A DNA stretch of 56,095 bases from contig JAFAYV010000023.1 in assembly GCA_019240115.1 (NCBI GenBank), forward strand, positions 1 to 56,095, in the 5' to 3' direction. The number at the start of each line of letters is the position of its first letter. The first letter of the stretch is position 1. Source of the DNA: Solirubrobacterales bacterium. Lineage in GTDB: Bacteria; Actinomycetota; Thermoleophilia; Solirubrobacterales; Solirubrobacteraceae. The position numbers and the translations under genes were made by a program. This document shows positions 13,576 to 29,535 of this stretch, piece after piece. Under the pieces are notes generated by a model, which worked only from the letters and a program-made list of their open reading frames with translations, did not search any database and was not told where the DNA came from.

Positions 13576-15072
13576 TCACGTCGCCTGCAGCTCGGCGGTG
13601 GGCTCCTCCGCCATCTCGGTCTCGGTGACCGCCGCGAGCCCGGGCTCGGTCCGGCGGCCGGACAGGACGACGAGCGCGACCAGGATCCCGGCCGAGACGC
13701 ACCCCGCCCCGATGAGAAACGCGAAGTGGTCGCCGGATACGAGCGACGAGGTCAGCGGGTGACCCGCCGCGACCAGCGCCCTGGTGTGGCTCGTGGCGGC
13801 GGTGCCGAGCACGGCGAGGCCGAGCGCCCCGCCGACCTGCTGGGAGACGTTGACGACGCCCGACCCGAGGCCGGCGTCGGCCGCCGGCACGTCGGCCATG
13901 GCGATCGTCAGCAGCGGCATGAACGCGGAGCCGATCCCCAGACCGATGCACAGGAAGGCAGCGAACACGGTCGGGAAGTACGGCGTGGCGGCGCCCGCGG
14001 CGCTGAGCAGGACGAGCCCGCCGATGACGGTCACCATGCCCGCGACGAGCACCCGCATGGGACCGAAGCGGTTGACCAGTCGGGCGGTGATCCCGAGCGA
14101 CAGCGCGCCGACGGTCATCGTCCACGGGAGGAAGCCCAGGCCCGTTGCCAACGCCCCGAAGTGGCGCACGTGCTCGAGGTACAGCGCGCCCAAGAAGAAC
14201 GTCGAGTACATGCCGGTCACGAGGAAGGCGCGGACGACGCTCGAGCCGCTGAGCCCGCGCAGCCTCAGGATCCGCAGCGGCATGATCGGGTTCTCGAGCC
14301 GCGCCTCGAGCGCGAGGAAGGCCGTCATGAGCGCGATCGCCAGCGCGCCGAAGCCGAGCACGGTGCTCGAGCCCCAGCCGTCGGCGGTCGCCTGCACGAT
14401 CGCGTAGACGCCGGTCATCAGCGAGGCGGTGACCAGCAGCGAGCCGAGCCAGTCGATCCCGTGCGCGAGCCCCGGGCCCTCGTCGGCGGGGATGAGCAGA
14501 CGTCCGGCGGCGATCGTCGCCAGTCCGATCGGGAGGTTGACGAAGAAGATCCAGTGCCAGCTGAGCGCCTCGGTGATGAGGCCGCCGGCGAGCAGGCCCA
14601 GCGACCCGCCCGCGACGGCGACGAAGACATAGGCGCTCATCGCCCGCGCGCGCTCGGCGGGCTCGGCGAACTGGGTGACGATGATGGCCAGGATGACCGA
14701 GGCCTGCATGGCGGCGCCGATCCCCTGCAGGAAGCGGGCGCCGATGAGCACGCCCTGCGTCGGTGCCAGGCCGCAGAGCAGCGAGGCCGCCGTGAACACG
14801 GTGACGCCGAGGAGGAAGACGCGCTTGCGCCCCAGCAGGTCGCCGAGGCGGCCGGCGAGCAGCAGGAAGCTGCCGAAGGTGATGAGGAAGGCGTTGATGA
14901 CCCAGGTGAGATCGTCCTGGGTGAAGCCGAGATCGCGCTGGATGTCGGGCAGGGCGACGTTCACGATCGTCGCGTCGAGCACGATCATGAGCTGCGCCAT
15001 GCAGACGACCACGAGGGCCATCCAGCGGCGGCGATCGGGCTGCAGGGAGGAGATGAGGTTCGTCATGTGCAT
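13576..15072 (-). CDS. DHA2/EmrB-QacA family major facilitator drug efflux pump
   Basis: About 498 aa with 14 predicted membrane segments, as expected for the DHA2 family. Motif A-like LAGRLGDLLGRKRVFLLG follows TM2; DATIVNVALPDIQRDLGFT in TM1 carries the DHA2 signature aspartate; GGSLGLLAGGLITEALSW resembles antiporter motif C. It exports hydrophobic compounds using the proton gradient. Two starts, ATG 15072 and ATG 15066, are possible and neither has a strong SD. It is divergent from a TetR gene whose three operators overlap this promoter, so it is almost certainly repressed by that regulator. Confidence 0.92.
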   Translation of the reverse strand: MHMTNLISSLQPDRRRWMALVVVCMAQLMIVLDATIVNVALPDIQRDLGFTQDDLTWVINAFLITFGSFLLLAGRLGDLLGRKRVFLLGVTVFTAASLLCGLAPTQGVLIGARFLQGIGAAMQASVILAIIVTQFAEPAERARAMSAYVFVAVAGGSLGLLAGGLITEALSWHWIFFVNLPIGLATIAAGRLLIPADEGPGLAHGIDWLGSLLVTASLMTGVYAIVQATADGWGSSTVLGFGALAIALMTAFLALEARLENPIMPLRILRLRGLSGSSVVRAFLVTGMYSTFFLGALYLEHVRHFGALATGLGFLPWTMTVGALSLGITARLVNRFGPMRVLVAGMVTVIGGLVLLSAAGAATPYFPTVFAAFLCIGLGIGSAFMPLLTIAMADVPAADAGLGSGVVNVSQQVGGALGLAVLGTAATSHTRALVAAGHPLTSSLVSGDHFAFLIGAGCVSAGILVALVVLSGRRTEPGLAAVTETEMAEEPTAELQAT

Positions 15073-15110
15073 CCAGACTGTTGAGGCGAAAGGAGGATCG
15101 GTGGTAAACT

Positions 15111-15169
15111 GGAGGACGTCTCCGGAAACAACCGGAGGTCGCCTCCAGATAATAGCGGAGGCATCCTCC
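15111..15169. promoter_or_regulatory. three TetR operators spaced exactly 23 bp
   Basis: Three 13-bp palindromes: GGAGGACGTCTCC (15111-15123), GGAGGTCGCCTCC (15134-15146) and GGAGGCATCCTCC (15157-15169). Centres lie at 15117, 15140 and 15163, i.e. 23 bp apart, about two helical turns. They fill the region between the divergent efflux and TetR genes and overlap the predicted minus-strand promoter. Confidence 0.8.
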
Positions 15170-15179
15170 ACTTTGTCAA
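15149..15179 (-). promoter_or_regulatory. predicted promoter of the efflux pump gene
   Basis: On the minus strand a perfect -35 TTGACA (15179-15174) is followed after 19 bp by TATTAT (15154-15149). The third operator lies in the spacer and the second just downstream, so repressor binding would block polymerase. Confidence 0.5.
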
Positions 15180-15192
15180 GCGATCCGCGCCC

Positions 15193-15780
15193 ATGACCGC
15201 CACCAGCAACTCCGTCTCGCCGTCGGTGGCGGCGCGTCCCAAGCGGTCCGACGCCCGGCGCAACTACGAGAAGGTGCTCGCGGCCGCCCGCGACGCGTTC
15301 GCCGAGGGCGGAGCGGAGGCCTCGCTGGAGGAGATCGCGCGCCGGGCCGGGGTCGGGATCGGCACCCTGTATCGCAACTTCCCGAACCGCCAGGCGCTTC
15401 TCGAGGCCGTCTACGTCGAGGAGGTCGAGGCCCTGTGCGCCTCGGCGACCCGTCTCGACAACCTCCCGCCCTGGGAGTCGCTCGTCGCGTGGCTGCACGG
15501 CTTCGTGGCCTACATCCGGACCAAGCAGGCGCTCGCCCCCGAGCTGCTCGACCATCTCGGCCGCGACGCCTCGGTGTTCCGGAGCTGTCGTGAGGCGCTG
15601 GTCAGCGCCGGGGCACCGCTGCTGACGCACGCCCAGGAGGCGGGCGTGGTCCGTCCCGACACCGACCTCGACGAGGTCCTACAGCTCGTCGGCGGCGTGG
15701 CGAAGATCCCCGGCCGGGCGCCCGAGGAGATCGACCACATGCTCGACATCGCGCTCGACGGCCTGCGCTACCGCGCCTGA
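15193..15780 (+). CDS. TetR/AcrR family repressor
   Basis: 195 aa. The N-terminal helix-turn-helix is typical: ARRNYEKVLAAARDAFAEGG, ASLEEIARRAGVGIGTLYRNF (residues about 47-67), then NRQALLEAVYVEEVEAL. The rest is a helical ligand-binding domain of the SbtR/TetR_C type (LDRLPPWES-like LDNLPPWESLVAWLHGFVAYI). It is divergent from the DHA2 pump and should bind the three GGAGG palindromes between them, repressing the pump and probably itself until a ligand binds. Confidence 0.92.
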   Translation: MTATSNSVSPSVAARPKRSDARRNYEKVLAAARDAFAEGGAEASLEEIARRAGVGIGTLYRNFPNRQALLEAVYVEEVEALCASATRLDNLPPWESLVAWLHGFVAYIRTKQALAPELLDHLGRDASVFRSCREALVSAGAPLLTHAQEAGVVRPDTDLDEVLQLVGGVAKIPGRAPEEIDHMLDIALDGLRYRA

Positions 15781-18003: not shown

Positions 18004-18813
18004 CTACCGGAGCGCGGTCCCCGCGTCGCCCGCGCCGACGCCCGGAGCCCCGCAGGCGATCGACCGATCAGCGTCGGCGACCCCAGCTCGCACCGCGGCG
18101 GCGAGGTCGGTCGAGAGGCCACGCCTGGCTGGGCCGTCGATCCGCGCCGAGGTTCGCACCCGAACGTCGGCGGCGCGGCGCACCGCGACGCCATGATCGA
18201 CGAGGCGGCGCAGGAACGAGGCGTCCTCGAGATCGGGGACGTCGGGAAGGCCTCCGACGCGGCGGTAGGCGCGTGCGGTGACGCCCAACGACGCTCCGGC
18301 GAAATGATGGTGGGCGGCGCCCGGGTCATTGCGTTGGACGCGCTCGAGGCGGATCCCCGCCTGGTGGTCGCGCTGGGCGAGGACGTGCGCCGGTAGCTGG
18401 GCGGCCTCGGCGTCGTCGAGCTCGATGAGGCCCGCGACGACCTCGACGCCGCTGTCGATCTGCGCGAGCTGTCGTTCGAGCCAGTCCGGCGCCGGTCGGG
18501 TGTCGGCGTCGGTGCTGGCGATCAGGCCGGTGGGGCGGCCGGCGCGCAGCAGCTGGGCGCAGGCGGCGTCCATCCCCAGGCGGCGAGCGGGGCCGGACCC
18601 GGCTCCGGGGCCCGTCAGGCAGCGAAGGGGCAGACCGACGGCGCGGGCGGTGCGAGCGGCGACGAGGGCCGTGGCGTCGTGGCAGGCGTCGAGCACGACG
18701 ATCGTGGCGAACCTCCCGGGGCGCAGCGTCTGGGCGCCCAGCGCGAGCAGGCACGCCTCGATGTGCCGCTCCTCGTTGCGGGCCGGCACGACGACGACGG
18801 CGGCTAGCGACAC
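18004..18813 (-). CDS. family 2 glycosyltransferase, last gene of the NodB-AcDH-NodS-GT2 operon
   Basis: 269 aa. GT-A fold of GT2: AAVVVVPARNEERHIEACLLAL (residues 4-25), the nucleotide-binding IVVLDACHDAT, and a DTD-like metal site ASTDADTRPAPDWLERQL (about 99-116). An acceptor-side block PDLEDASFLRRLVDHG follows. It overlaps the methyltransferase gene by 10 nt. It should transfer a sugar from a nucleotide sugar to an unknown acceptor in the cytosol; there are no membrane helices for a processive synthase. Confidence 0.87.
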   Translation of the reverse strand: MSLAAVVVVPARNEERHIEACLLALGAQTLRPGRFATIVVLDACHDATALVAARTARAVGLPLRCLTGPGAGSGPARRLGMDAACAQLLRAGRPTGLIASTDADTRPAPDWLERQLAQIDSGVEVVAGLIELDDAEAAQLPAHVLAQRDHQAGIRLERVQRNDPGAAHHHFAGASLGVTARAYRRVGGLPDVPDLEDASFLRRLVDHGVAVRRAADVRVRTSARIDGPARRGLSTDLAAAVRAGVADADRSIACGAPGVGAGDAGTALR

Positions 18814-19400
18814 GGCTCTCCGCGTCGCTCGAAGACGTCGAGCAGGTAGTCATCGGTGTGCTGCATGGCCACCGGCGCCAGCCATGGGGTGTCGTGCAGC
18901 CGGGCGTGGACCTCGGCGGCGGTGAAGGGTCGCTCGGGTCCCGCGGGACGCCAGTGCACGGCCACGAGCCGGCCCTGCGGGCCCAGGCATCGGCCGAGTC
19001 GGTCCAGCGTGTCGCTCAGGTCTACCGGGGCCAGGTAGTAGAGGATCTCGGAGGCGACGACGAGCTCGAAGCTCTGGAGCGGGATGGCGTCGGGGATCAC
19101 GCCGAGCAGGCTCGTGACGTGCGGGAGCCCGAGCAGCCGCCGGCGGGCGTCGGCCACGGCGGTCGGCGACGCGTCGACGGTGATCAGGGACCGACACGCG
19201 GGCGCGAGCCGGGCGGTGAAGGCGCCGATCGACGCTCCGAGCTCGAGTGCCGTCGTGAACGGCGCGGCGCGGCCCCGCGTGCACGCCGCGAGCGTCGCCT
19301 GGTACTTGTCTCGTTCGTAATCGCTGGTCAGATACGACCAGGGGTCGGGATCGGCCTGGTACAGGGCCTCGAAGTCGGCGTTGCTCATATGCTGGGCCAT
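18804..19400 (-). CDS. SAM-dependent methyltransferase, NodS-like
   Basis: 198 aa from the ATG at 19400 (a second ATG is at 19388). The start FEALYQADPDPWSYLTSDYERDKY matches NodS-type N-methyltransferases. The SAM site is ALELGASIGAFTARLAPACR (motif I), then LITVDASPTAV and FELVVASEILYYLAP. NodS methylates the free amine of de-acetylated chito-oligosaccharide in rhizobial Nod factor. Here the gene lies 1 nt after a dehydrogenase gene and overlaps a GT2 gene, in an operon that also has a NodB-like deacetylase. N-methylation of an amino sugar is inferred, not shown. Confidence 0.86.
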   Translation of the reverse strand: MAQHMSNADFEALYQADPDPWSYLTSDYERDKYQATLAACTRGRAAPFTTALELGASIGAFTARLAPACRSLITVDASPTAVADARRRLLGLPHVTSLLGVIPDAIPLQSFELVVASEILYYLAPVDLSDTLDRLGRCLGPQGRLVAVHWRPAGPERPFTAAEVHARLHDTPWLAPVAMQHTDDYLLDVFERRGEPCR

Positions 19401-19401
19401 C

Positions 19402-20511
19402 TCAGGTGCGTTCGAGAGCGGCCTCGCCCGCTCGCGCGAGCAGAGGCTCGAGCCGGTGCTGGAGCATGAAGAGCTCGAGGTCGCGCCGAGCGCGGTCGAG
19501 GTCTTCCGCCAGCGCGAACGGCCGCGAGCCACAGGCGCGCGCGGCCTCGTCGAGCAGCGCTCGGCACGCGTCGGCGATCGCGGTTCGCGCGAACAGGGCG
19601 GTCTCGGCGAGGTGCGCCTCCGCGCGATCCATGGCCCGCGCACCGGCGGCGAGCCACACGTCGATCGTCCGCTGCGCCGCGAGGATGCGCCCGGCGGCGA
19701 GCGCCTCGAGCTCGCCGCGCCGCGGACGCGCACGCAGCGCGTCGAGCGCGGCCTCGACGGCGGTGTCGGCCATGCCGGCCCAGCTCGCGGCGGTCCGCAG
19801 GGCGTCGCGGCCGAACCACGGCTGTTCGGCGATCGCGCCGGGCTCGCCGATCATGGCGATGACCGGGGCGTCGCGGAAGACGACGCGATGGGAGACCGAG
19901 GCGCGGAGGCCGTGGGCCCGGTACCAGGTCTCGTCGATGAGCACGTGCCGGGCGTCGAGCGCGTCGACCCACACCATCACCGGCGGACCCGCGTCGGGGT
20001 CCGGGCTGGGGCGAGCGAGCACGAGCGCCCGGTTACAGCCTCCGGCTCCCGAGCAGAACGTCTTGACGCCGCGCAGGACCTGACGGCGACCGGAGCCGAC
20101 GACGGCCGCGGGTGGACCCTCGCCGGGGACGGGATCCCCGCCCCACACGCCGGCCAGCAGCGTGCCGGCGATCGCCGCCTGGCGCTCGCGCTCGCGCACG
20201 TCGGCGGGCGCGTGGACGGCGAGCCGCTCGATCGCGTTGAGGTGTCCGTCGAAGATCCGCCCCACCGAACCGTCGGCGGCAGCGACGCGCCGGACGAGCG
20301 CAAGCTCGTCCGCGGCCGGGGGACGCTGCCGTCCGACGGTGGCGTTCCAGCGCAGAGCCCCGCCGGCGCGCAGGGTGCAGAACGCGTCGCGCGGGAACCG
20401 CGGGTGCAGCTGGGCGTCGCGGGCCGCCGCGCCGGCCGCGATCGCGGCGACCGCGCTCTCGAGCGTCGTGGCGCCGGGCGGGGTGGCTCCGGGGACCGCG
20501 GCGGCCGTCAC
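19402..20511 (-). CDS. acyl-CoA dehydrogenase-fold protein
   Basis: 369 aa. The fold is visible in the N-terminal helices (DELALVRRVAAADGSVGRIFDGHLNAI), the middle beta domain (LRGVKTFCSGAGGCNRALVLA, ISxTxxxR-like ETWYRAHGLRASVSHRV) and a C-terminal helical domain (FGRDALRTAASWAGMADTAVEAAL, FARTAIADACRALLDEAARACGSRPF). Family members desaturate or hydroxylate acyl groups with FAD or FMN. Overlaps the deacetylase gene by 4 nt (ATGA) and sits 1 nt before the methyltransferase. It lacks an obvious catalytic Glu of classical enzymes, so it may act on an unusual substrate. Confidence 0.8.
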   Translation of the reverse strand: MTAAAVPGATPPGATTLESAVAAIAAGAAARDAQLHPRFPRDAFCTLRAGGALRWNATVGRQRPPAADELALVRRVAAADGSVGRIFDGHLNAIERLAVHAPADVRERERQAAIAGTLLAGVWGGDPVPGEGPPAAVVGSGRRQVLRGVKTFCSGAGGCNRALVLARPSPDPDAGPPVMVWVDALDARHVLIDETWYRAHGLRASVSHRVVFRDAPVIAMIGEPGAIAEQPWFGRDALRTAASWAGMADTAVEAALDALRARPRRGELEALAAGRILAAQRTIDVWLAAGARAMDRAEAHLAETALFARTAIADACRALLDEAARACGSRPFALAEDLDRARRDLELFMLQHRLEPLLARAGEAALERT

Positions 20512-21128
20512 TCAAGCGCCCCCAATCGCAGTCCGTGGCGCTCCGCATGATCGATGACCCGCCCGGTGAAGCCGAGCGTCTGCTCGGCGTCGTCGCGTCG
20601 GGCGCCGGGGCCGATCCCGTCGTGGGCGAGGACGATGGCGCCCGCCCGCAGCCCCGCGCGGGTGGCCGCGAACATCGCGTCGGCGCTGTCGCCGCGCCAG
20701 TCGTGGGTGTCCACCGTCCAGCCCACCAGCGCGAGTCGATGCTCATCGGCGAGCGCCGCGGTCCACGGCGCCCGATCGCCCCACGGCGTGCGCCACAGCC
20801 GGGGCCGGAGCCCGAGCGCCGCGAGGGCGTCGAGCGCTCGCGCGGTGTCCGAGCGCACCCACGCCACGTCGCGATCACGGTGGCGCACATGCTCGAGGCA
20901 GTGCAGGCCGACGGCGTGTCCCTCGTCGGTCATCCGCGCCATCAGCTCCGGGCTGGCGGCCGCACGGTCGGCCATCACGAAGAAGGTCGCGCGCGCGCCG
21001 GCGCCCGCCAGGATGTCGAGCAGCCGCGGCGTCGTCCGGCGATCGGGACCGTCGTCAAAGGTCAGCGCGAGGGTGGGCACGTCGGAGACGGCGCGGTGTG
21101 GGCATCGACCGCGCGCTACCCAGCTCAT
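20508..21128 (-). CDS. polysaccharide deacetylase, NodB-like (CE4)
   Basis: 206 aa. CE4 motif 1 TLALTFDDGPDRRTTPRLLDIL (catalytic Asp, metal Asp at residues about 25-27) and motif 2 HAVGLHCLEHVRHRD (metal histidines in HxxxH-like spacing) are present, then RLWRTPWGDRAPW (motif 3) and LVGWTVDTHDWRGDSADAM (motif 4), and AIVLAHDGIGPG with the late histidine (motif 5). These enzymes remove N-acetyl from sugars. No signal peptide is obvious, so it may act in the cytosol like NodB. It starts 36 nt after the LCP gene on the same strand. Confidence 0.88.
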   Translation of the reverse strand: MSWVARGRCPHRAVSDVPTLALTFDDGPDRRTTPRLLDILAGAGARATFFVMADRAAASPELMARMTDEGHAVGLHCLEHVRHRDRDVAWVRSDTARALDALAALGLRPRLWRTPWGDRAPWTAALADEHRLALVGWTVDTHDWRGDSADAMFAATRAGLRAGAIVLAHDGIGPGARRDDAEQTLGFTGRVIDHAERHGLRLGALE

Positions 21129-21164
21129 GACCGGTGAACCAACGCCGCGGGCGAGCCGGTCGCC

Positions 21165-23003
21165 TCATTGCCGCGTGGGGCGTCCCGTAGTGACCGACGC
21201 TGCCATCGCGGCGCGGACGTCCGCCTGGCGAGCCAGGTTCGCCTCAAGCTGCCTGCCGACCTGCCGCGCCAGCCGCCGCTGTCTGAAGAGCACGAGCCCC
21301 AGCAGCGGAAAGGCAACCAGTGTCGCAAGTCCCGCGACCACGCCGATCGTCTGCACGGGCGAAGCGTGGACCGTTGAGGTCGTCCGAGCCGGCGCCGAAA
21401 TGGCGTTGAGAATCACGCGCTTTGCAGCACCGGCTCCCCGACCGCCGGCGACGGCGCCGATCGGCACCGTCTGCTCGGCGATCGCGAGCAGTTCGCCGTG
21501 GCCAACCCCGTTCGTCAGCGTGTTGTGTACCCAGTACACGGCGCCGTGCTCGCGCCAGGCCACCATCTGCAGCTGAGCTCCGTCGTAGTAGAGGGCATAG
21601 GTGCGCTGGCCGACCCGAAGGATCTGATTTGGGTTTGTAAACAGCGGCGCGTCGGTCCACGTCGTTCCCTGCACGTCGTAGAACTGGCCAAGCTGCCCGT
21701 TGGAGAACACCTCGACGTAGGCGGGATAAGCCTTCCCGCCCGGGCCCTGGATGAGATAGTCGCGAATGCACGCCTGCACCTGCGTGGTGCAGCGCGCTGA
21801 GACCGCGAACATGCCGCTGCCCGCCAGGCTCTGCACCTTTGGAAACTCGGCCACGAACGGGATCCTTCTGGTCGCCGCCTTCTCGGCGGCAACGTTTGCT
21901 CCCAGCGTCGGCGTCAGCGGTAGGTGCGCGAGCGTGAGACGGCGCGCGACCCTTCGCGCAACGGCCGCCGTCTGCCTCGTGGGCGGCGGCTTGCCGCCGA
22001 CCAGGAAGTCGTGCACGCTCTGTTGGATCTGAGCGGGACTGGCGGTCAGGTCGCCGTTCGGGAGGGGGCTGGCGAGGAACGGCACCTGGCGCACGTGCAG
22101 CCCGGCGGCCGTGATGAGCAGATCGGCCAGGTGCAGGATCTCGGTCGAGCTGTCCAGCCCCGGATCGGTCTGCACGGTCTGGCCGAAGATCCTCTCGAAC
22201 CTGCCGACGTTGCCGGAGAGCTCGGGACCGTACTGCTTCTTGACGTCCAGGAGGAAGGCCTGGTCGCGCGCGTCGCGGATCTGCGAGGTATCGGTATGGC
22301 GGTAGGAGACGAACTGCTCGGCCTGGCTCCCGCCCAGGCATTGATACCCAGGCTGCAGGTCGACGTTCTGATACTGGGCACCGCCGGCGGCGTTGTTGTG
22401 GTAGTAGCGCTCATCGACCGTCGAATAGACGCAGCCCAACTCGTCGATCGCCTTCTCAAAGCGGCCGAACGTGGCCACGACCACGTGGTTGATCGATACC
22501 CCGGTGACCTGCTTGATCGTCTGCAGCAGATATGTGAGCCCCCCCGTGTACGCCGCGTTCAGTCGCGTCGGGCCGACGACCCCGCTCGGGGTCTGGATCG
22601 GGACCCACAACTCGCGCGGAATCGACATCATCGAGATCCACGGCTTGCTCGGGTCGATGCGCACGAGCAGCATCTCGTTGGCGAGATGGGGCACCGCATG
22701 CGCGTAGTACCGGGTGGCCGGGCGCCAGTCGTCGCCGACGAGCAGCAGCGTCTCCGGGCTTCCGTAGGAGTCCGGGGCGAGCGCCCGGCGATCGATCTTC
22801 AGCGGCTGGCCCGCCCGCAGGTCATGCGCCACGGTGTGAACCTGCTCCAGGATGAACACCGCCGTCGCCCCGCCACTTGCGAGCACCACGATCAGGCAGC
22901 CCAGCAGCAGCCGCCAGACGATCCGGCGCCGCGGCGGCTTGCCCTCTGGGTCAGCGGACGGCGGATCTGACGGGCGCGTTGGCGGCGGCGCGGCGACGCT
23001 CAC
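21165..23003 (-). CDS. LytR-CpsA-Psr (LCP) ligase with long C-terminal region
   Basis: 612 aa from GTG 23003. A proline-rich cytosolic head is followed by TM IVWRLLLGCLIVVLASGG (about 28-45). The LCP domain (about 75-280) has TLLLVGDDW, LLVRIDPSKPWISMMSIPREL, TRLNAAYTGG, NHVVVATFGRFEKAIDELG and SYRHTDTSQIRDARDQAFLL with the conserved arginines. The C-terminal 300 residues add a secreted beta-rich domain and a second TM near the end (QTIGVVAGLATLVAFPLLGL), unusual for LCPs. The family transfers glycopolymers from lipid carriers to peptidoglycan. It is 36 nt upstream of the deacetylase operon. Confidence 0.88.
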   Translation of the reverse strand: MSVAAPPPTRPSDPPSADPEGKPPRRRIVWRLLLGCLIVVLASGGATAVFILEQVHTVAHDLRAGQPLKIDRRALAPDSYGSPETLLLVGDDWRPATRYYAHAVPHLANEMLLVRIDPSKPWISMMSIPRELWVPIQTPSGVVGPTRLNAAYTGGLTYLLQTIKQVTGVSINHVVVATFGRFEKAIDELGCVYSTVDERYYHNNAAGGAQYQNVDLQPGYQCLGGSQAEQFVSYRHTDTSQIRDARDQAFLLDVKKQYGPELSGNVGRFERIFGQTVQTDPGLDSSTEILHLADLLITAAGLHVRQVPFLASPLPNGDLTASPAQIQQSVHDFLVGGKPPPTRQTAAVARRVARRLTLAHLPLTPTLGANVAAEKAATRRIPFVAEFPKVQSLAGSGMFAVSARCTTQVQACIRDYLIQGPGGKAYPAYVEVFSNGQLGQFYDVQGTTWTDAPLFTNPNQILRVGQRTYALYYDGAQLQMVAWREHGAVYWVHNTLTNGVGHGELLAIAEQTVPIGAVAGGRGAGAAKRVILNAISAPARTTSTVHASPVQTIGVVAGLATLVAFPLLGLVLFRQRRLARQVGRQLEANLARQADVRAAMAASVTTGRPTRQ

Positions 23004-23205
23004 GTTGCACGCCCTTGGCAACCGGGTCCGGACATCATCGCGATGCGTAAGCCTACGCAAGCCCCGGGACGCGACGCTTGGGGCGCGTCCCACGGGCCGG
23101 CAGGATCCCAGGCACGTGGCTTGCCAGGCGCCGAGCGCGCCACCTCGCGAGGGCCGTGGGCGACATAAGATCCGTTATCGAGCGTGAACGGGCGGCGCCG
23201 CGGAC

Positions 23206-24282
23206 TCAGAAACTGTGGCGCGACAACCGGAGTCCGCCGTAGTGGCGCTCGGCGCTCATGGCCCTCAGCGCCGGGACCATCTCGCTGGTGACGAGGCCCC
23301 GCTCGGCGGTCAGCTCGTCGATGATCTGAAACGAGCCGGCCACGCGCTCGGGGGTGTCGACGGTGATCGTCACCACCGGAGCGTGACGGCGCAGCTGGAA
23401 GAACCGGTCGCCGTGCGGAGCGTGATCGCCGTGGAATCCCCACACGCCGCGCACGCTCGTGGCGCCGGCGGCGTCGGTGCGCCGCAGCCGGCGGATGATC
23501 TCCACGTGCAGCGGGCGTCCCTCGTAGCTCGCGGCCTGCGAGCTGAAGACCGTCAGCTTCTGCCAGATCGCGAGGCCGTGCTCGTCGGTGGCCGGCAGCT
23601 CGTGCGGACGGGCCAACAGCTGCCCGTCGCGCTTGCAGACGCGGACGCGCTCGACGGTGACGAGGGGATCGTCGAGCATGCGCCCGAGCTCGGGGAGGAT
23701 CTCGGCGATCCGTGCTCCGGCTCCCACGGCCATGACCATCATCGGGACGTCGGCATTGGCGGCGAAGAACGCCGCGCGCGTGCGTCGGCCACGGTGGGTG
23801 CCGTCGACGCCGAGGAACACCGTGGCTCCCGCGATCCCGCTGCGGTGGAGCAGGTCGCAGACCGCCGCGAACGCGGGCGTGCCGTCCACGCGCTCCCGGC
23901 GTCCGACGTAGGCGGTCAGCTTGGTCGCCTCGTGGGACGCCTCGGGGAGCTGCACCCGGGCGATGTCGCCGGAGAGCAGGCGAGCCCGCTCGAGGGTGAT
24001 CAGCCCGCGCTGCTTGACCTGCAGGACGAGCTCGAGCAGCGACTCGATCCGCTCGCGGCGGTCCACGGCGATCGAGACCACCGGCAGGTCCTCCGACAGG
24101 GACAGCAGACGGTCGGTGTGCAGATGGTGCAGGCGCCCGAACCCCTCGACGCCGCGCAGCAGGATGCTCGTCTGCAGACGGTTGCCGCCGAAGAGATCGA
24201 GCAGCTGGTCGCCGAGCAGGCGACCCTCGGAGCGATCGCGCTCGCCGAAGTAGGTGGTCAGCTTCAGGCAGTCGTCGTTCAT
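23206..24282 (-). CDS. triple DUF190 (PII-like) protein
   Basis: 358 aa from ATG 24282. Three DUF190 modules in tandem, each starting with a KLTxYxGxRxR-type strand: residues about 5-105 (CLKLTTYFGERDRSEG), 118-222 (ATKLTAYVGRRERVDG) and 240-345 (QKLTVFSSQAASYEG). Each contains a GxxGATVxxGVxGxG-like helix start and an LPVVSIAVDRRERIESLL-like PII strand. DUF190 proteins resemble the PII signal-transduction fold and often neighbour crcB. Three copies in one chain would give a built-in pseudo-trimer. It overlaps the second crcB by 4 nt and belongs to the fluoride operon. Confidence 0.9.
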   Translation of the reverse strand: MNDDCLKLTTYFGERDRSEGRLLGDQLLDLFGGNRLQTSILLRGVEGFGRLHHLHTDRLLSLSEDLPVVSIAVDRRERIESLLELVLQVKQRGLITLERARLLSGDIARVQLPEASHEATKLTAYVGRRERVDGTPAFAAVCDLLHRSGIAGATVFLGVDGTHRGRRTRAAFFAANADVPMMVMAVGAGARIAEILPELGRMLDDPLVTVERVRVCKRDGQLLARPHELPATDEHGLAIWQKLTVFSSQAASYEGRPLHVEIIRRLRRTDAAGATSVRGVWGFHGDHAPHGDRFFQLRRHAPVVTITVDTPERVAGSFQIIDELTAERGLVTSEMVPALRAMSAERHYGGLRLSRHSF

Positions 24283-24644
24283 GCCGCCCTCCCGATGGCG
24301 CGTCCGAGGGTGGCGGCGAGCACGCCGGCGACGATGCTGACCGCGAGGTTGACGAGCGCGCCGCGGGTGTCGGCCTCCTCGGCGAGCCGCTCGGTCTCGA
24401 GCATCCAGGTGGAGAAGGTCGTGTAGGACCCCAGGGTCGCGGTGCCGGCGAGCAGGAGCGCGTTGCCGGTCAGCCCGAGCCCGTTCAGCAGACCGAGCAG
24501 GAACGCGCCGCTGAGGTTGATCACCAGCGTTCCCCAGGGAAACGCACGCCCGGCGCGCTGGGAGATCGCGCCGTCGATGAGGAAGCGGCCGACCGCGCCG
24601 ACGCCGCCGAGCCCCGCGATCGCCGCCCACACCCCGGGGCTCAC
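24279..24644 (-). CDS. crcB: CrcB/Fluc fluoride channel subunit (second of pair)
   Basis: 121 aa, GTG at 24644, overlapping the first crcB by 4 nt. Four membrane segments. Signature GxxGAxxRF appears as GLGGVGAVGRFLIDG; GTLVINLSGAFLLGLLNG contains the conserved NxxG of the fluoride pore; GSYTTFSTWMLETE carries the phenylalanine/threonine ion-path motif. Fluc channels are dual-topology dimers; two genes in tandem usually make an antiparallel heterodimer. It exports fluoride. Confidence 0.93.
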   Translation of the reverse strand: MSPGVWAAIAGLGGVGAVGRFLIDGAISQRAGRAFPWGTLVINLSGAFLLGLLNGLGLTGNALLLAGTATLGSYTTFSTWMLETERLAEEADTRGALVNLAVSIVAGVLAATLGRAIGRAA

Positions 24645-25039
24645 GCCAGCTGCCGGGGCCGGCGCACGATCGCGGTGGTCAACCAGATGGCACCGTAGCC
24701 GGCGGTGATGCTGGCCGCCGCGTAGCCGAGCGCGAGCCCATCCCGTCCGGCGTCGAGCATCCGCAGAACCTCGACCTGCATCGTCGAGAACGTCGTATAG
24801 GCGCCGCAGAAGCCGGTGCCGATGAACGGCCGGCGATACGTCGACTGCGGCAGGCGCTCCTGGAGGCGCGTGGCGGCGTAGGCGAGCACGGCCGATCCGC
24901 TGATGTTGACGACGAACGTCGCCCAGGGCCAAGCGGGTGCGGCGGCGGTGAAACGCTCGCTGACCCAGATGCGCAGCAGCGCCCCGATCATTCCGCCGGC
25001 GAAGATCGCCGCCAGCTCTCGTCGGTCCAGCCGGGCCAT
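24641..25039 (-). CDS. crcB: CrcB/Fluc fluoride channel subunit (first of pair)
   Basis: 132 aa, ATG at 25039. Seen: GGMIGALLRIWVSERF (N-terminal GxxGAxxR motif), WATFVVNISGSAVLAYAATRL (pore asparagine) and GFCGAYTTFSTMQVEVLRML (channel phenylalanines). Four membrane segments. The leader contains a fluoride riboswitch, and a 12-codon ORF ends 6 nt before this ATG. The ATG itself has no good SD, so translation is probably coupled to that leader ORF. Confidence 0.94.
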   Translation of the reverse strand: MARLDRRELAAIFAGGMIGALLRIWVSERFTAAAPAWPWATFVVNISGSAVLAYAATRLQERLPQSTYRRPFIGTGFCGAYTTFSTMQVEVLRMLDAGRDGLALGYAAASITAGYGAIWLTTAIVRRPRQLA

Positions 25040-26277: not shown

Positions 26278-26792
26278 CCGACCGCACGCGGTGGTCACGA
26301 GGTGGCCGCCGAACCGTCGCGCCTCACCGCTGAGGATGACGATCGAGTTGCGCCGTGACCGCGGGCGCCACGACTTTGGACGGTCCGTTCCCGGGCCGAT
26401 GTCGTCTGACCCCCGGAGACCGGGGGTTGTACGACTCCCGATCACCGCGCCGCTGCCGGATGTCGCGCTACCCCTCCGGTTCCCTGGCTCCCTCCCGCCG
26501 ACGTTCCAGACCGGGCCCGGGGAAGTGGTCGCCGCCGTCGCCAATCCTCATCCGAGCACGATCGTTGTCAAACGAGACTGGCTCCCATCCATCTTCGTCC
26601 GGAATCAAGCTCGCGGTCCATGGAATCGGCTCGCGGTACATCTAAAGCTTGATCACATCGCCGCGACAGCTCGGCACTCGACAAGTCTCGCCTGCCCTAG
26701 AAGGCCAGAATGAGACCTAGTCCTAGAATGGTATAGTCCTGGCGGTCGCTCGCTGATTGCGCTCTTCGTCTTCGCCTCTTCTGAGGTCGCCC
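26278..26792. other. 515-bp gene-free stretch upstream of the zinc-uptake operon
   Basis: I see no convincing ORF or RNA family here. GC falls toward the right end, consistent with promoter DNA. The last 80 bp carry the operon promoter described separately. Confidence 0.5.
26718..26740 (+). promoter_or_regulatory. candidate metal-responsive promoter of znuA operon
   Basis: A TAGTCCT heptamer is directly repeated at 26718-26724 and 26734-26740 (16 bp apart), and a -10-like TATAGT lies at 26732-26737. The direct repeat around the -10 suits repression by the Fur-family protein encoded at the end of the operon. It does not match a textbook Zur box. Confidence 0.4.
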
Positions 26793-27764
26793 ATGTCTGC
26801 TGGCCCGCGCTCGGTACGCCTCCATCTCGCCGTCCTGGCTGTGCTGGTCGGGGTGGCTGTCGCCGGGTGTGGCAGCTCGTCATCCTCTTCGTCCTCAGGT
26901 GCCGCCGCCTCGGGTGGCGCAGGCGCCAAGACCTCAGCGCCGATCGCCGCCGTCGGGGCGGAGAACGAGTACGCAAACGTCATCTCGCAGATCGGCGGCC
27001 CGTACGTGCGGGTGTCGGCGATCGAGAGCAACCCGAACACCGATCCGCACACCTTCGAGGCCAGCCCGAGCGTCGCCCAGGAGGTCAGCCAGGCGAAGCT
27101 GATCGTCCAGAACGGAGTCGGCTACGACGACTACATGACGAAGATCGAGTCCGCCTCGCCGAGCAGTTCGCGCAAGATCATCGACGTGCAGCACCTGCTC
27201 GGGCTGCCCAACAGCACTCCAAACCCGCATCTGTGGTACTCGCCGAACACGATGCCGGCGGTCGCCAAGGCGCTGGGCGCGGATCTCGCGGCGCTCGATC
27301 CGTCCCACGCCGCCCTCTTTCGCGCCAACGTCGCCAAGTTCGATTCGTCGCTGAAGCCGTGGTACGCCGCGGTCGCCGCGTTCAAAGCCAAGTACCGCGG
27401 CACGCCGGTGGCCACGACTGAGCCGGTCGCGGACTATCTGCTGGAGGCGATGGGGACGAAGAATCTGACCCCGTTCGTGTTGCAGGCCGACATCATGAAC
27501 GGCAACGACCCGAGCGCACAGAACGTCGCCCTCGAGAACGGGTTCTTCTCCAAGCACAAGGTCAAGGTGTTTGCCTATAACCAGCAGGTCGTCGACTCGC
27601 TGACCGAGTCGATCCGCGCCAACGCTCAAAAGGCCGGCGTGCCGGTGGTCGGGGTCTATGAGACGATGCCGACCCCCGGCTACACCTATCAGTCGTGGAT
27701 GCTGGCCGAGGCCAAGGCGCTGCAAGCCGCCGTGACCAACCAGAAGTCGACGCTTCGCCTATGA
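26793..27764 (+). CDS. znuA: zinc/manganese ABC transporter substrate-binding lipoprotein
   Basis: 323 aa from ATG 26793. Signal peptide with lipobox VAVAGC (Cys26), then a serine-rich tether. Cluster A-I/TroA fold: VGAENEYANVISQIGG, DPHTFEASPSVAQEVSQAKL with His86, TPNPHLWYSPNTMPAV with His146, a TTEPVADYLLEAMG carboxylate region and a YETMPTPGYTYQSWM C-terminal block. The loop His-rich tract of classical ZnuA is absent, so the metal may be Zn or Mn. It binds the metal at the cell surface and hands it to the permeases. ATGA overlap with znuC. Confidence 0.9.
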   Translation: MSAGPRSVRLHLAVLAVLVGVAVAGCGSSSSSSSSGAAASGGAGAKTSAPIAAVGAENEYANVISQIGGPYVRVSAIESNPNTDPHTFEASPSVAQEVSQAKLIVQNGVGYDDYMTKIESASPSSSRKIIDVQHLLGLPNSTPNPHLWYSPNTMPAVAKALGADLAALDPSHAALFRANVAKFDSSLKPWYAAVAAFKAKYRGTPVATTEPVADYLLEAMGTKNLTPFVLQADIMNGNDPSAQNVALENGFFSKHKVKVFAYNQQVVDSLTESIRANAQKAGVPVVGVYETMPTPGYTYQSWMLAEAKALQAAVTNQKSTLRL

Positions 27765-28612
27765 GACCAGCAGCCCAGCATCATCCTCACGTGCGGGCGC
27801 TGGCAGTCGACGGGGTGAGCGTGACGCTCGGCGGCCGGCGGATCCTCGACGAGGTTGCGTTCACGGTGCAGCGTGGGCAGTTCACCGGCCTGATTGGCTC
27901 CAACGGCGCCGGCAAGACGACATTGCTGCGGGTCATCCTTGGTCTGCAGCGTCCGCACGCCGGCCGGGTGCTCCTCGCCGGACGGCCTCGGGCGCGGCGT
28001 AACCGTTCGATCGGCTACGTGCCGCAGAAAGTCGGTCTAGATCCCGACCTGCCCATGCGCGCCCGCGATCTCGTCGAGCTCGGGATCGACGGCCACCGGC
28101 TGGGGATCGCGCGCCCGTCGCCGGCGCGTCGTGAGCTCGTCGCCGAGATGCTGGCCGCGGTCGATGCCGAGCGGTTCGCCGACTCTCGGGTTGGGCGGCT
28201 GTCCGGCGGCGAGCAGCAGCGCATCCTGATCGCTCATGCGCTCGTTGCCCGTCCCCAGCTGCTGCTGTTAGACGAGCCGCTGGCCAACCTCGACCTGCGC
28301 AGCGGCCAGGAGATCGTCTCGCTGCTTGACCGAATCGCAACCGAGCACGAGATCGCCGTGCTGCTCTCCGTCCACGAGATGAACCCGCTGCTATCGGTCA
28401 TGGACCGAGTCGTGTACCTCGCGGGCGGCCGCGCGGTCAGCGGCACCACCGACCAGGTGATCCGCTCTGACGTGCTCTCGGGCCTGTACGGCCATCGGGT
28501 CGAGGTGCTGCACGTGGCCGGGCGGATCCTCGTGGTCGCCGGCGGCCCTGCGGCGACAAACGGCTCCCCGGACGGGCTCCCCGGCGCTGCCCCGCTTCCC
28601 GACGCGAGGTAG
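27761..28612 (+). CDS. znuC: zinc/manganese ABC transporter ATP-binding protein
   Basis: 283 aa, ATG at 27761 overlapping the znuA stop by 4 nt. Walker A GSNGAGKTT (about residues 47-55), Q-loop GYVPQKVGLD, signature LSGGEQQRI, Walker B LLLLDEPLANLD and switch histidine LLSVHEMN are all intact. It powers metal import with the two permeases downstream. The C-terminal 25 residues are a low-complexity tail. Confidence 0.94.
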   Translation: MRPAAQHHPHVRALAVDGVSVTLGGRRILDEVAFTVQRGQFTGLIGSNGAGKTTLLRVILGLQRPHAGRVLLAGRPRARRNRSIGYVPQKVGLDPDLPMRARDLVELGIDGHRLGIARPSPARRELVAEMLAAVDAERFADSRVGRLSGGEQQRILIAHALVARPQLLLLDEPLANLDLRSGQEIVSLLDRIATEHEIAVLLSVHEMNPLLSVMDRVVYLAGGRAVSGTTDQVIRSDVLSGLYGHRVEVLHVAGRILVVAGGPAATNGSPDGLPGAAPLPDAR

Positions 28613-28617
28613 GCGCG

Positions 28618-29535
28618 GTGGGCTGGCTCATCGAACCGGGGTTCTTTGCCAGCGCACAGGTGCACACCGCCTTGGTCATCGGCGCAGCGGCGGCGCTGGT
28701 GTCGGCGGTCGTGGGGGTGTTCACGGTCATCCGCGGCCAGTCCTTCGGCGGGCACGCGCTCACCGATGCCTCGGCCACCGGCGGCTCCGGATCGCTGCTC
28801 GCCGGGGTCAACCCGCTGTTGGGGTTCGTGGTCGGCGCTGTGACCGCCGCGGGGGCGATGGAGGCGATCGGCGTGCGCCACGCCCGCGGCCGCGACCTTG
28901 CCACCGGGATCGTGCTCGGCGCCTCCATCGGCTTGGCGTCCCTGTTCTTATACCTTGACACCACCGCCACCGCCACCACCGGCGCGACCCAGCAGATCCT
29001 GTTCGGCTCGATCTTCGCCCCCGCGCCGGGCACCGTGCCCATCGTCGCCGGGTTCGGCGCCGCCTCGCTGGCCATCATCCTGGCGCTCTACCGGCCGCTG
29101 CTCCTGACGTCGATCAGCGGCGACCTCGCCGCGGCCCGCGGCGTCCCGGTGCGCCTGGTCGGCCTGGCGTACATGCTCGCCCTCGCCCTCGCGGTCGCGT
29201 TGTCATCGCTGGCGATCGGCGCGATCCTGTCCACCGCCCTGCTCATTGGGCCACCCGCCACCGCCCTGCACGCCACCCGACGCGCCGGACGGGCGCTCAT
29301 CGGCGCGGCCGGGCTGGGGATCGCCTGCACCTGGATCGGGGTGCTCCTGGCCTACGACAGCGCCCACTGGTTCAGCGACGGCAACGGTCTACCGGTCAGC
29401 TTCTTCATCGTCGCCGTGATCTTCCTCGCCTACCTCATCTCTGACCTCACCACCCACCGCGCCACCCGACGGTCGACCGCGGCCGGGCGCACGGGTGCCC
29501 TCGTCGGAGACCGCGACCCCCGAGCGGCGCGCTAG
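28618..29535 (+). CDS. znuB: metal ABC transporter permease 1 (ABC-3 family)
   Basis: 305 aa, GTG start 5 nt after znuC. About eight membrane segments in the ABC-3 (ZnuB/MntB) pattern: FTVIRGQSFGGHALTDASATGG (conserved HALxDA loop), ATGIVLGASIGLASLFLYLD, LYRPLLLTSISGDLAAARGVPVRLVG (EAA-like coupling helix), and AILSTALLIGPPATALHATRR. Forms the channel with permease 2, giving a heterodimer. Confidence 0.9.
   Translation: MGWLIEPGFFASAQVHTALVIGAAAALVSAVVGVFTVIRGQSFGGHALTDASATGGSGSLLAGVNPLLGFVVGAVTAAGAMEAIGVRHARGRDLATGIVLGASIGLASLFLYLDTTATATTGATQQILFGSIFAPAPGTVPIVAGFGAASLAIILALYRPLLLTSISGDLAAARGVPVRLVGLAYMLALALAVALSSLAIGAILSTALLIGPPATALHATRRAGRALIGAAGLGIACTWIGVLLAYDSAHWFSDGNGLPVSFFIVAVIFLAYLISDLTTHRATRRSTAAGRTGALVGDRDPRAAR

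What the first reader, a model, noticed from the sequence alone, without database searches (positions are those of the whole stretch)
18004..23003. LCP - NodB-like - acyl-CoA dehydrogenase-like - NodS-like - GT2 operon
Five genes on one strand with 36-nt, 4-nt (ATGA), 1-nt and 10-nt-overlap junctions: an LCP wall-polymer ligase, a CE4 deacetylase, an acyl-CoA-dehydrogenase-fold protein, a NodS-like methyltransferase and a GT2. In rhizobia NodB deacetylates and NodS N-methylates the amine of an amino sugar. Here the same two chemistries are joined to a dehydrogenase and a ligase for attaching glycopolymers to peptidoglycan. I infer a pathway for an N-methylated, possibly lipid-modified amino-sugar molecule displayed on the wall. 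I know of no described product for this gene set.
Basis: partly seen in the sequence, partly recalled or inferred. Interest (0 to 1): 0.8.

Follow-up and report, generated by a model that had tools for sequence, protein, structure and literature searches.

The report
Conserved amino-sugar modification gene cassette
Four of these five genes are an undescribed gene cassette found in at least seven bacterial phyla, often beside oxidative-stress and drying-protection genes, that probably builds a small methylated and oxidised amino-sugar molecule inside the cell; the fifth gene, the wall ligase, is only a neighbour.

Summary
The five genes are present as described and overlap tightly. The four-gene core (deacetylase, acyl-CoA-dehydrogenase-fold flavoprotein, NodS-like methyltransferase, GT2) is strongly conserved: 57 of 60 homologous loci with adequate flanks carry all four, and the set occurs in seven phyla. 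Deacetylation is constant but its enzyme is swapped: CE4 in the actinobacterial clade, PIG-L elsewhere. The LCP ligase lies beside the core in 0 of 80 loci and 1.3 Mb away in a complete same-genus genome, so it is not part of the system. The 'acyl-CoA dehydrogenase' lacks the catalytic glutamate and is closest by sequence to flavin monooxygenases (DszC, MsuC), with sugar N-oxygenases (KijD3, DnmZ) in the same superfamily. No core protein has a signal peptide or membrane helix. Relatives add a ferredoxin-reductase-like gene and fuse GT2 to glucosyl-3-phosphoglycerate synthase; in this genome both lie on another contig. Neighbours are often catalase, trehalose and other stress genes. Best reading: a cytosolic pathway making a deacetylated, probably N-oxygenated and methylated amino-sugar glycoside, likely a stress protectant. 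Substrate, step order and product are inferred. I found no published description in the library I could search.

The parts
18004..18813 (-). GT2: soluble GT-A glycosyltransferase, 269 aa, invariant D102-x-D104 and E196-D197; lacks the C-terminal GpgS domain that relatives carry
   Evidence: Pfam PF00535 4.5e-11; alignment A3; no TM segment; fusion in relatives
18804..19400 (-). NodS-like SAM methyltransferase, 198 aa, start ATG at 19400; invariant D-P-W and Y-E-x2-K N-terminal motif
   Evidence: PF05401 1.9e-16, NF041650 78.6 bits (cut-off 300); profile A5 vs 4isc 174 bits and NodS 3ofj 115 bits
19402..20511 (-). ACAD-fold flavoprotein, most likely a flavin-dependent (group D-like) monooxygenase; no catalytic Glu; FCSGA motif as in DszC
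   Evidence: profile vs PDB, Foldseek, VIA-align tie, catalytic-column counts, AF2 model pLDDT 95
20508..21128 (-). NodB/CE4-type deacetylase, cytosolic; all five CE4 motifs intact
   Evidence: PF01522 2.2e-23, NodB TIGR04243 114 bits (cut-off 240); alignment A6; no hydrophobic signal segment
21165..23093 (-). LCP-family (LytR-CpsA-Psr) protein: same-strand upstream neighbour, judged NOT part of the conserved cassette
   Evidence: PF03816 1.6e-21; relative in 25 of 28 genus genomes, not linked to the cassette in those examined; 0 of 80 cassette loci

Best explanation
A conserved biosynthetic cassette for a small, cytosolic, modified amino-sugar glycoside. Inferred order: (1) the GT2 transfers an N-acetylhexosamine (probably GlcNAc) to an acceptor; in Solirubrobacterales the fused or relocated GpgS domain suggests a glucosyl-glycerate-type acceptor or co-product. 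(2) The CE4 enzyme (PIG-L in other phyla) removes the acetyl group to expose the amine. (3) The ACAD-fold flavoprotein, fed with reduced flavin (in actinobacteria probably via the NADH ferredoxin-reductase-like RED), oxygenates the molecule, most likely at the new nitrogen. (4) The NodS-like enzyme methylates the nitrogen or N-oxygen. The product probably serves oxidative, desiccation or stationary-phase survival. Shown here: gene set, conservation, interchange of deacetylase type, loss of the ACAD catalytic base, absence of export signals, and frequent stress-gene neighbours. Inferred: substrates, order, N-oxygenation, product role.
For: Four-gene linkage in 57 of 60 adequately flanked loci, kept even when GT2 is convergent with the other three. 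CE4 and PIG-L occupy the same slot in sister clades (CE4 clade 26 rows, support 100/100), which points to N-deacetylation as the step. In rhizobia N-methylation by NodS follows NodB deacetylation (PMC5080398). ACAD profile best PDB relatives: DszC 124 bits, MsuC 118, indole monooxygenase 99, against 84 for the best annotated acyl-CoA dehydrogenase and 82 for KijD3; nitrososynthase 73, DnmZ 62. MCAD Y375/E376 correspond to an invariant Gln351 and His/Pro/Ala/Ser352, never Glu, in 38 sequences. RED lies next to the core in 16 of 18 CE4-type loci and 0 of 41 PIG-L loci; it is absent from five cassette-free genus genomes tested. GT2 is fused to GpgS over the curated cut-off in relatives. No TM or signal segment. 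Stress neighbours: catalase, otsA/otsB, Dps, CsbD, PRC-barrel.
Against: Overall fold does not separate monooxygenase from dehydrogenase (VIA-align Z 34.7-36.4 for both). No HpaC-type flavin reductase was seen and, outside actinobacteria, no dedicated reductase is linked. RED is absent from two cassette-bearing genus genomes. DszC Asn129 is replaced by an invariant Val. GpgS is fused only in part of the actinobacterial clade. Donor and acceptor sugars are unknown. Stress neighbours are common but not universal and were not compared with a control set of loci.
Confidence: 0.5

Rival explanations
1. Same cassette, but the flavin enzyme oxygenates a carbon or sulfur centre (C-hydroxylation, or a low-molecular-weight thiol-type cofactor), with the amine kept only as the methylation site.
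For: Nearest characterised relatives by profile are the S-oxygenase DszC and the sulfinate monooxygenase MsuC; SfnB and DszC are the NCBIfam models matched by most members, 36 and 31 of 38; PIG-L relatives include the thiol enzymes BshB and MshB below cut-off; catalase and Dps neighbours.
Against: No cysteine ligase or sulfur-handling gene is among the commonest neighbour families; an amine made by a constant deacetylase next to a superfamily member that includes sugar N-oxygenases fits N-oxygenation at least as well.
Confidence: 0.25
2. One reading: an N-methylated, possibly lipid-modified amino-sugar polymer attached to the wall by the LCP ligase.
For: LCP gene 36 nt upstream on the same strand, so it may be co-transcribed in this genome.
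Against: LCP in 0 of 80 homologous loci; LCP orthologue 1.3 Mb from the cassette in a complete same-genus genome, and no cassette gene beside it in five other genus genomes; core enzymes without export signals; ACAD catalytic Glu missing.
Confidence: 0.04
3. The ACAD-fold protein is a true acyl-CoA dehydrogenase or desaturase supplying an acyl group to an N-acylated sugar (a Nod-factor-like lipid signal).
For: Fold is indistinguishable from acyl-CoA dehydrogenases by VIA-align; one weak FadE16 match, 23.6 bits against a cut-off of 600.
Against: No Glu at the MCAD E376 column, and no Glu at the likely IVD-type position, where the family has Asp or Gly; no NodA-type acyltransferase or ETF genes seen nearby; profile closer to monooxygenases.
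Confidence: 0.08
4. The four genes are a degradative or salvage set for environmental methylated amino sugars rather than a biosynthetic one.
For: Deacetylases and flavin monooxygenases also occur in catabolism; patchy, plasmid-borne distribution.
Against: A glycosyltransferase and a SAM methyltransferase are anabolic; no transporter or glycoside hydrolase recurs across loci.
Confidence: 0.05

Closest known systems
Rhizobial NodB-NodS branch of Nod-factor synthesis (NodC, NodB, NodA, NodS)
   Same: Cytosolic CE4 deacetylation of a GlcNAc followed by NodS-family methylation; a GT2 supplies the sugar.
   Different: NodB and NodS models score far below their equivalog cut-offs; the GT2 is soluble and not a chitin synthase; no acyltransferase seen; an ACAD-fold flavin enzyme is a constant partner; the deacetylase is PIG-L in most phyla.
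ACAD-fold sugar N-oxygenases (KijD3, ORF36 nitrososynthase, DnmZ) and DszC/TdsC/MsuC group D-type flavin monooxygenases
   Same: ACAD fold without the catalytic Glu; FCSGA motif identical to DszC; full-length profile alignment.
   Different: The sugar N-oxygenases act on dTDP-deoxyaminosugars in antibiotic clusters; here no dTDP-sugar genes are linked, and deacetylase, methyltransferase and GT2 are constant partners.
PIG-L/GT small-molecule pathways (mycothiol MshA/MshB, bacillithiol BshA/BshB)
   Same: Glycosyl transfer then N-deacetylation in the cytosol; stress-linked product.
   Different: GT4 rather than GT2; a cysteine ligase is needed there; no flavin oxygenase or methyltransferase in their core.
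Glucosyl-3-phosphoglycerate synthase (GpgS) pathways: glucosylglycerate and methylglucose lipopolysaccharide
   Same: GpgS domain fused to this GT2 in many Solirubrobacterales, above the curated cut-off; methyltransferase nearby.
   Different: GpgS is not part of the cassette in other phyla and is relocated in the window's genome; the methyltransferase is NodS-type.

Membership tests
Acyl-CoA dehydrogenase (enzymatic class) | Catalytic Glu at the MCAD E376 position, or the IVD E254-type position | tested here: not met
   Residue 352 is H/P/A/S in 38 of 38 sequences; likely IVD-type position 236 is D or G, never E (the 236 equivalence is my own alignment by eye)
Group D-type flavin monooxygenase | ACAD fold and closer sequence relation to monooxygenases than to dehydrogenases | tested here: met
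   Profile: DszC 124 and MsuC 118 bits vs 84 for the best annotated ACAD; Foldseek top hits are monooxygenases. Fold alone ties
Group D-type flavin monooxygenase | Dedicated flavin reductase partner | tested here: inconclusive
   Pyr_redox_2/Reductase_C protein in 16 of 18 CE4-type loci, none in 41 PIG-L loci
Group D-type flavin monooxygenase | Oxygenation of substrate with reduced flavin and O2 | not testable with these tools
   Needs an enzyme assay
NodB chitooligosaccharide deacetylase | CE4 motifs 1-5, no signal peptide | tested here: met
   TFDDGPD, HxxxH, RxPWG, DxxDW, LxHD conserved; no hydrophobic segment
NodB chitooligosaccharide deacetylase | NCBIfam equivalog cut-off 240 bits | tested here: not met
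   114 bits
NodS N-methyltransferase | PF05401 domain with DPW / YE-x2-K N-terminal motif | tested here: met
   PF05401 60.9 bits; alignment to 3ofj, which has DPW and FE
NodS N-methyltransferase | NodS equivalog cut-off 300 bits | tested here: not met
   78.6 bits
Nod-factor (LCO) pathway | Membrane chitin synthase NodC | tested here: not met
   Cassette GT2 has no TM segment and matches MftF/EpsD-like GT2 models only weakly
Nod-factor (LCO) pathway | NodA acyltransferase linked | tested here: inconclusive
   Not among the 25 commonest Pfam families of 113 neighbour proteins; no dedicated search made
LCP wall-glycopolymer ligation system | LCP gene conserved with the polymer genes | tested here: not met
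   0 of 80 loci; unlinked in same-genus genomes
GpgS | NF010496 above 262 bits | tested here: not met
   Window GT2 has no such match; fused GT2 of relatives 319-357 bits; same genome contig C22 344 and C36 329 bits
Mycothiol/bacillithiol pathway | Linked GT4 plus cysteine ligase | tested here: inconclusive
   GT4-type matches in 6 neighbour proteins; no ligase among the commonest neighbour families; no dedicated search made

The most novel reading that the evidence does not exclude
A cross-phylum, horizontally spread pathway for a new class of small N-oxygenated, N-methylated amino-sugar glycoside (for example a nitrone, N-hydroxy-N-methyl or N-methoxy glucosaminide, glycerate-linked in actinobacteria) that acts as an intracellular redox or desiccation protectant in bacteria including Deinococcus, Acinetobacter, cyanobacteria and Rubrobacter.
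Probability: 0.3. Interest if true: 0.85.

Novelty: new variant of a known kind. Interest (0 to 1): 0.6.

Why it matters
The same four enzymes travel together across at least seven phyla, often on plasmids and in stress islands with catalase, trehalose synthesis, Dps or CsbD genes, yet all are annotated generically and one ('acyl-CoA dehydrogenase') misleadingly. A deletion and metabolomics experiment in a laboratory species could reveal an unknown stress metabolite shared by Deinococcus, Acinetobacter, cyanobacteria, Bacteroidota and deep actinobacteria. It also gives a clear case of non-orthologous replacement (CE4 for PIG-L) that points to the chemistry of one step.

Tried and rejected
LCP as a pathway member: rejected. 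ACAD as lipid enzyme: rejected on catalytic residues and profile. Separating monooxygenase from dehydrogenase by fold: not possible, Z-scores tie. Ten literature searches found no description of the cassette; a Nostoc punctiforme transcriptome and two Acinetobacter papers were read for matches and did not name it. Those searches cover open-licence papers only, and several strict term sets returned nothing, so absence from the literature is not shown.
Full report
WHAT IS THERE. The window is a whole 56-kb contig (C30) of a 4.0-Mb draft actinobacterial genome; two same-genus relatives have contigs of the same lengths as records named Conexibacter sp. DBS9H8 and Solirubrobacterales palsa_465. On the minus strand lie LCP 21165-23093 (or from 23003), CE4 20508-21128, ACAD-fold 19402-20511, NodS-like methyltransferase 18804-19400 and GT2 18004-18813. 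All are supported by codon-position GC and by Pfam and NCBIfam. Junctions are 36 nt, a 4-nt overlap (GTGA), 1 nt and a 10-nt overlap.

CONSERVATION. With home-made HMMs, 57 of the 60 loci that have at least 3.5 kb on both sides of the ACAD gene hold all four core genes (deacetylase, ACAD-fold, NodS-like, GT2). They come from Actinobacteriota, Cyanobacteriota, Bacteroidota, Pseudomonadota, Verrucomicrobiota and Thermomicrobiota. Annotated plasmids add Deinococcus, Acinetobacter, Cupriavidus, Pandoraea and Kitasatospora, with the set complete or partial (in D. radiodurans the set is interrupted by a helicase gene and no GT2 is listed next to it). In many loci the GT2 is convergent with the other three, so linkage persists without a shared transcript. 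Within the window's own class the ACAD-fold protein is patchy (18 of 216 good genomes, 13 of 91 genera), which together with plasmid carriage points to horizontal spread.

TWO DEACETYLASES, ONE STEP. PIG-L-type loci and CE4-type loci fall on separate sides of the ACAD tree; the CE4-type clade (Rubrobacter, Solirubrobacterales and kin; 26 rows including one locus without a detected deacetylase) has support 100/100. CE4 and PIG-L are unrelated folds with the same chemistry on N-acetyl amino sugars (established knowledge), so the slot is best read as N-deacetylation. CE4 motifs are intact. In rhizobia, N-methylation by NodS follows mono-deacetylation by NodB (PMC5080398); this orders the two steps by analogy only.

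THE 'ACYL-COA DEHYDROGENASE'. The Pfam match is below the gathering cut-off (24.5 against 33.3 bits). As a family profile, its best solved relatives are DszC (124 bits), MsuC (118) and indole monooxygenase (99), then the first annotated ACAD (84), KijD3 (82), the ORF36 nitrososynthase (73) and DnmZ (62). MCAD Y375 and E376 align to an invariant Gln351 and to His, Pro, Ala or Ser352, never Glu; Gln351 aligns with DszC His391 and Ser154 with DszC Ser163 in an identical FCSGA motif (numbering counted by hand, roles of the DszC residues from my own knowledge). The AlphaFold2 model is confident (pLDDT 95); Foldseek ranks monooxygenases first, but VIA-align gives tied Z for monooxygenases and dehydrogenases, so the fold alone does not decide. 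Reviews place group D two-component flavin monooxygenases in the ACAD fold, record N-hydroxylation among their reactions, and state that flavin N-hydroxylases accept amino sugars (PMC6165268, PMC7347517). I therefore read it as an oxygenase, probably but not certainly acting on nitrogen.

MISSING PARTS ELSEWHERE IN THE GENOME. In 16 of 18 CE4-type loci a Pyr_redox_2/Reductase_C protein (RED, ferredoxin-reductase-like) accompanies the core, usually between NodS and GT2, and in many Solirubrobacterales the GT2 continues into a domain that, in the three tested, passes the curated cut-off for glucosyl-3-phosphoglycerate synthase. The window has neither. Contig C22 of the same genome holds an adjacent RED and a GT2::GpgS fusion whose GT2 core is deleted, far from contig ends, and C36 holds a second GpgS that still carries the fusion linker. 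RED is found in four cassette-bearing genomes (G000, G001, G027, G053), is absent from five cassette-free genus genomes, and is also absent from two cassette-bearing ones. The window copy kept GT2 and lacks RED and GpgS; the C22 copy is the opposite. This complementary pattern suggests that both remain needed (inference).

LCP IS A NEIGHBOUR. An LCP relative is in 25 of 28 genus genomes, most of which lack the cassette. In the complete genome G015 it lies at 1.69 Mb and the cassette at 2.99 Mb; six LCP contexts contain no cassette gene and four cassette contexts contain no LCP. None of the 80 cassette loci has it. Core enzymes have no transmembrane or signal segment. Wall display is therefore not supported.

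CONTEXT. Neighbours in annotated plasmids include catalase, Mn-catalase, Dps, universal stress protein, PRC-barrel, CsbD and YsnF; in Acinetobacter johnsonii the order is catalase - DUF421 - DUF2171 - [ACAD, PIG-L, methyltransferase, GT2] - MFS - otsA - otsB. Among 113 neighbour proteins of 54 mostly PIG-L-type loci, five are catalases and two Mn-catalases. I estimate well under one by chance, but no control set was run. UDP-galactopyranose mutase and GT4 genes also occur near some loci.

VERDICT. Four-gene core: real, widespread, coherent, and undescribed as far as I could search. Mechanism: inferred cytosolic pathway GT2 -> deacetylase -> flavin oxygenase -> NodS-like methyltransferase, giving a modified amino-sugar glycoside with a probable stress role (confidence 0.5 for the general form, about 0.3 for the full N-oxygenated protectant).

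Noticed in passing
genome contig C22 (L115 6790-9314): RED and a GT2-core-deleted GT2::GpgS fusion, the parts missing from the window operon, lie together on another contig of the same genome.
   Followed up: yes
genome contig C36 (L116 6231-7226): Second GpgS copy that still carries the linker of the GT2::GpgS fusion, so it probably also derives from this operon.
   Followed up: partly
L011 5699-6900; L125 1118-3457: Deinococcus ACAD-fold proteins have an N-terminal extension of about 400 aa; the tested one (L011) has no Pfam match.
   Followed up: no
L010 10695-12335: 546-aa protein without Pfam match directly after GT2 in the Rubrobacter indicoceani plasmid.
   Followed up: no
L123 and L124 (Acinetobacter plasmids): The cassette sits in a stress island with catalase, DUF421, DUF2171, an iron-containing redox enzyme and otsA/otsB; the methyltransferase is found on many Acinetobacter plasmids.
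   Followed up: partly
window 23206-25039: DUF190 protein with three matched stretches next to a CrcB fluoride channel gene.
   Followed up: no
window 26757-29535: Zinc/manganese-type ABC transporter genes (substrate-binding protein and permease matched below cut-offs).
   Followed up: no
window 13576-15780: DHA2-family efflux transporter overlapping and opposite to a ScbR-like regulator gene.
   Followed up: no
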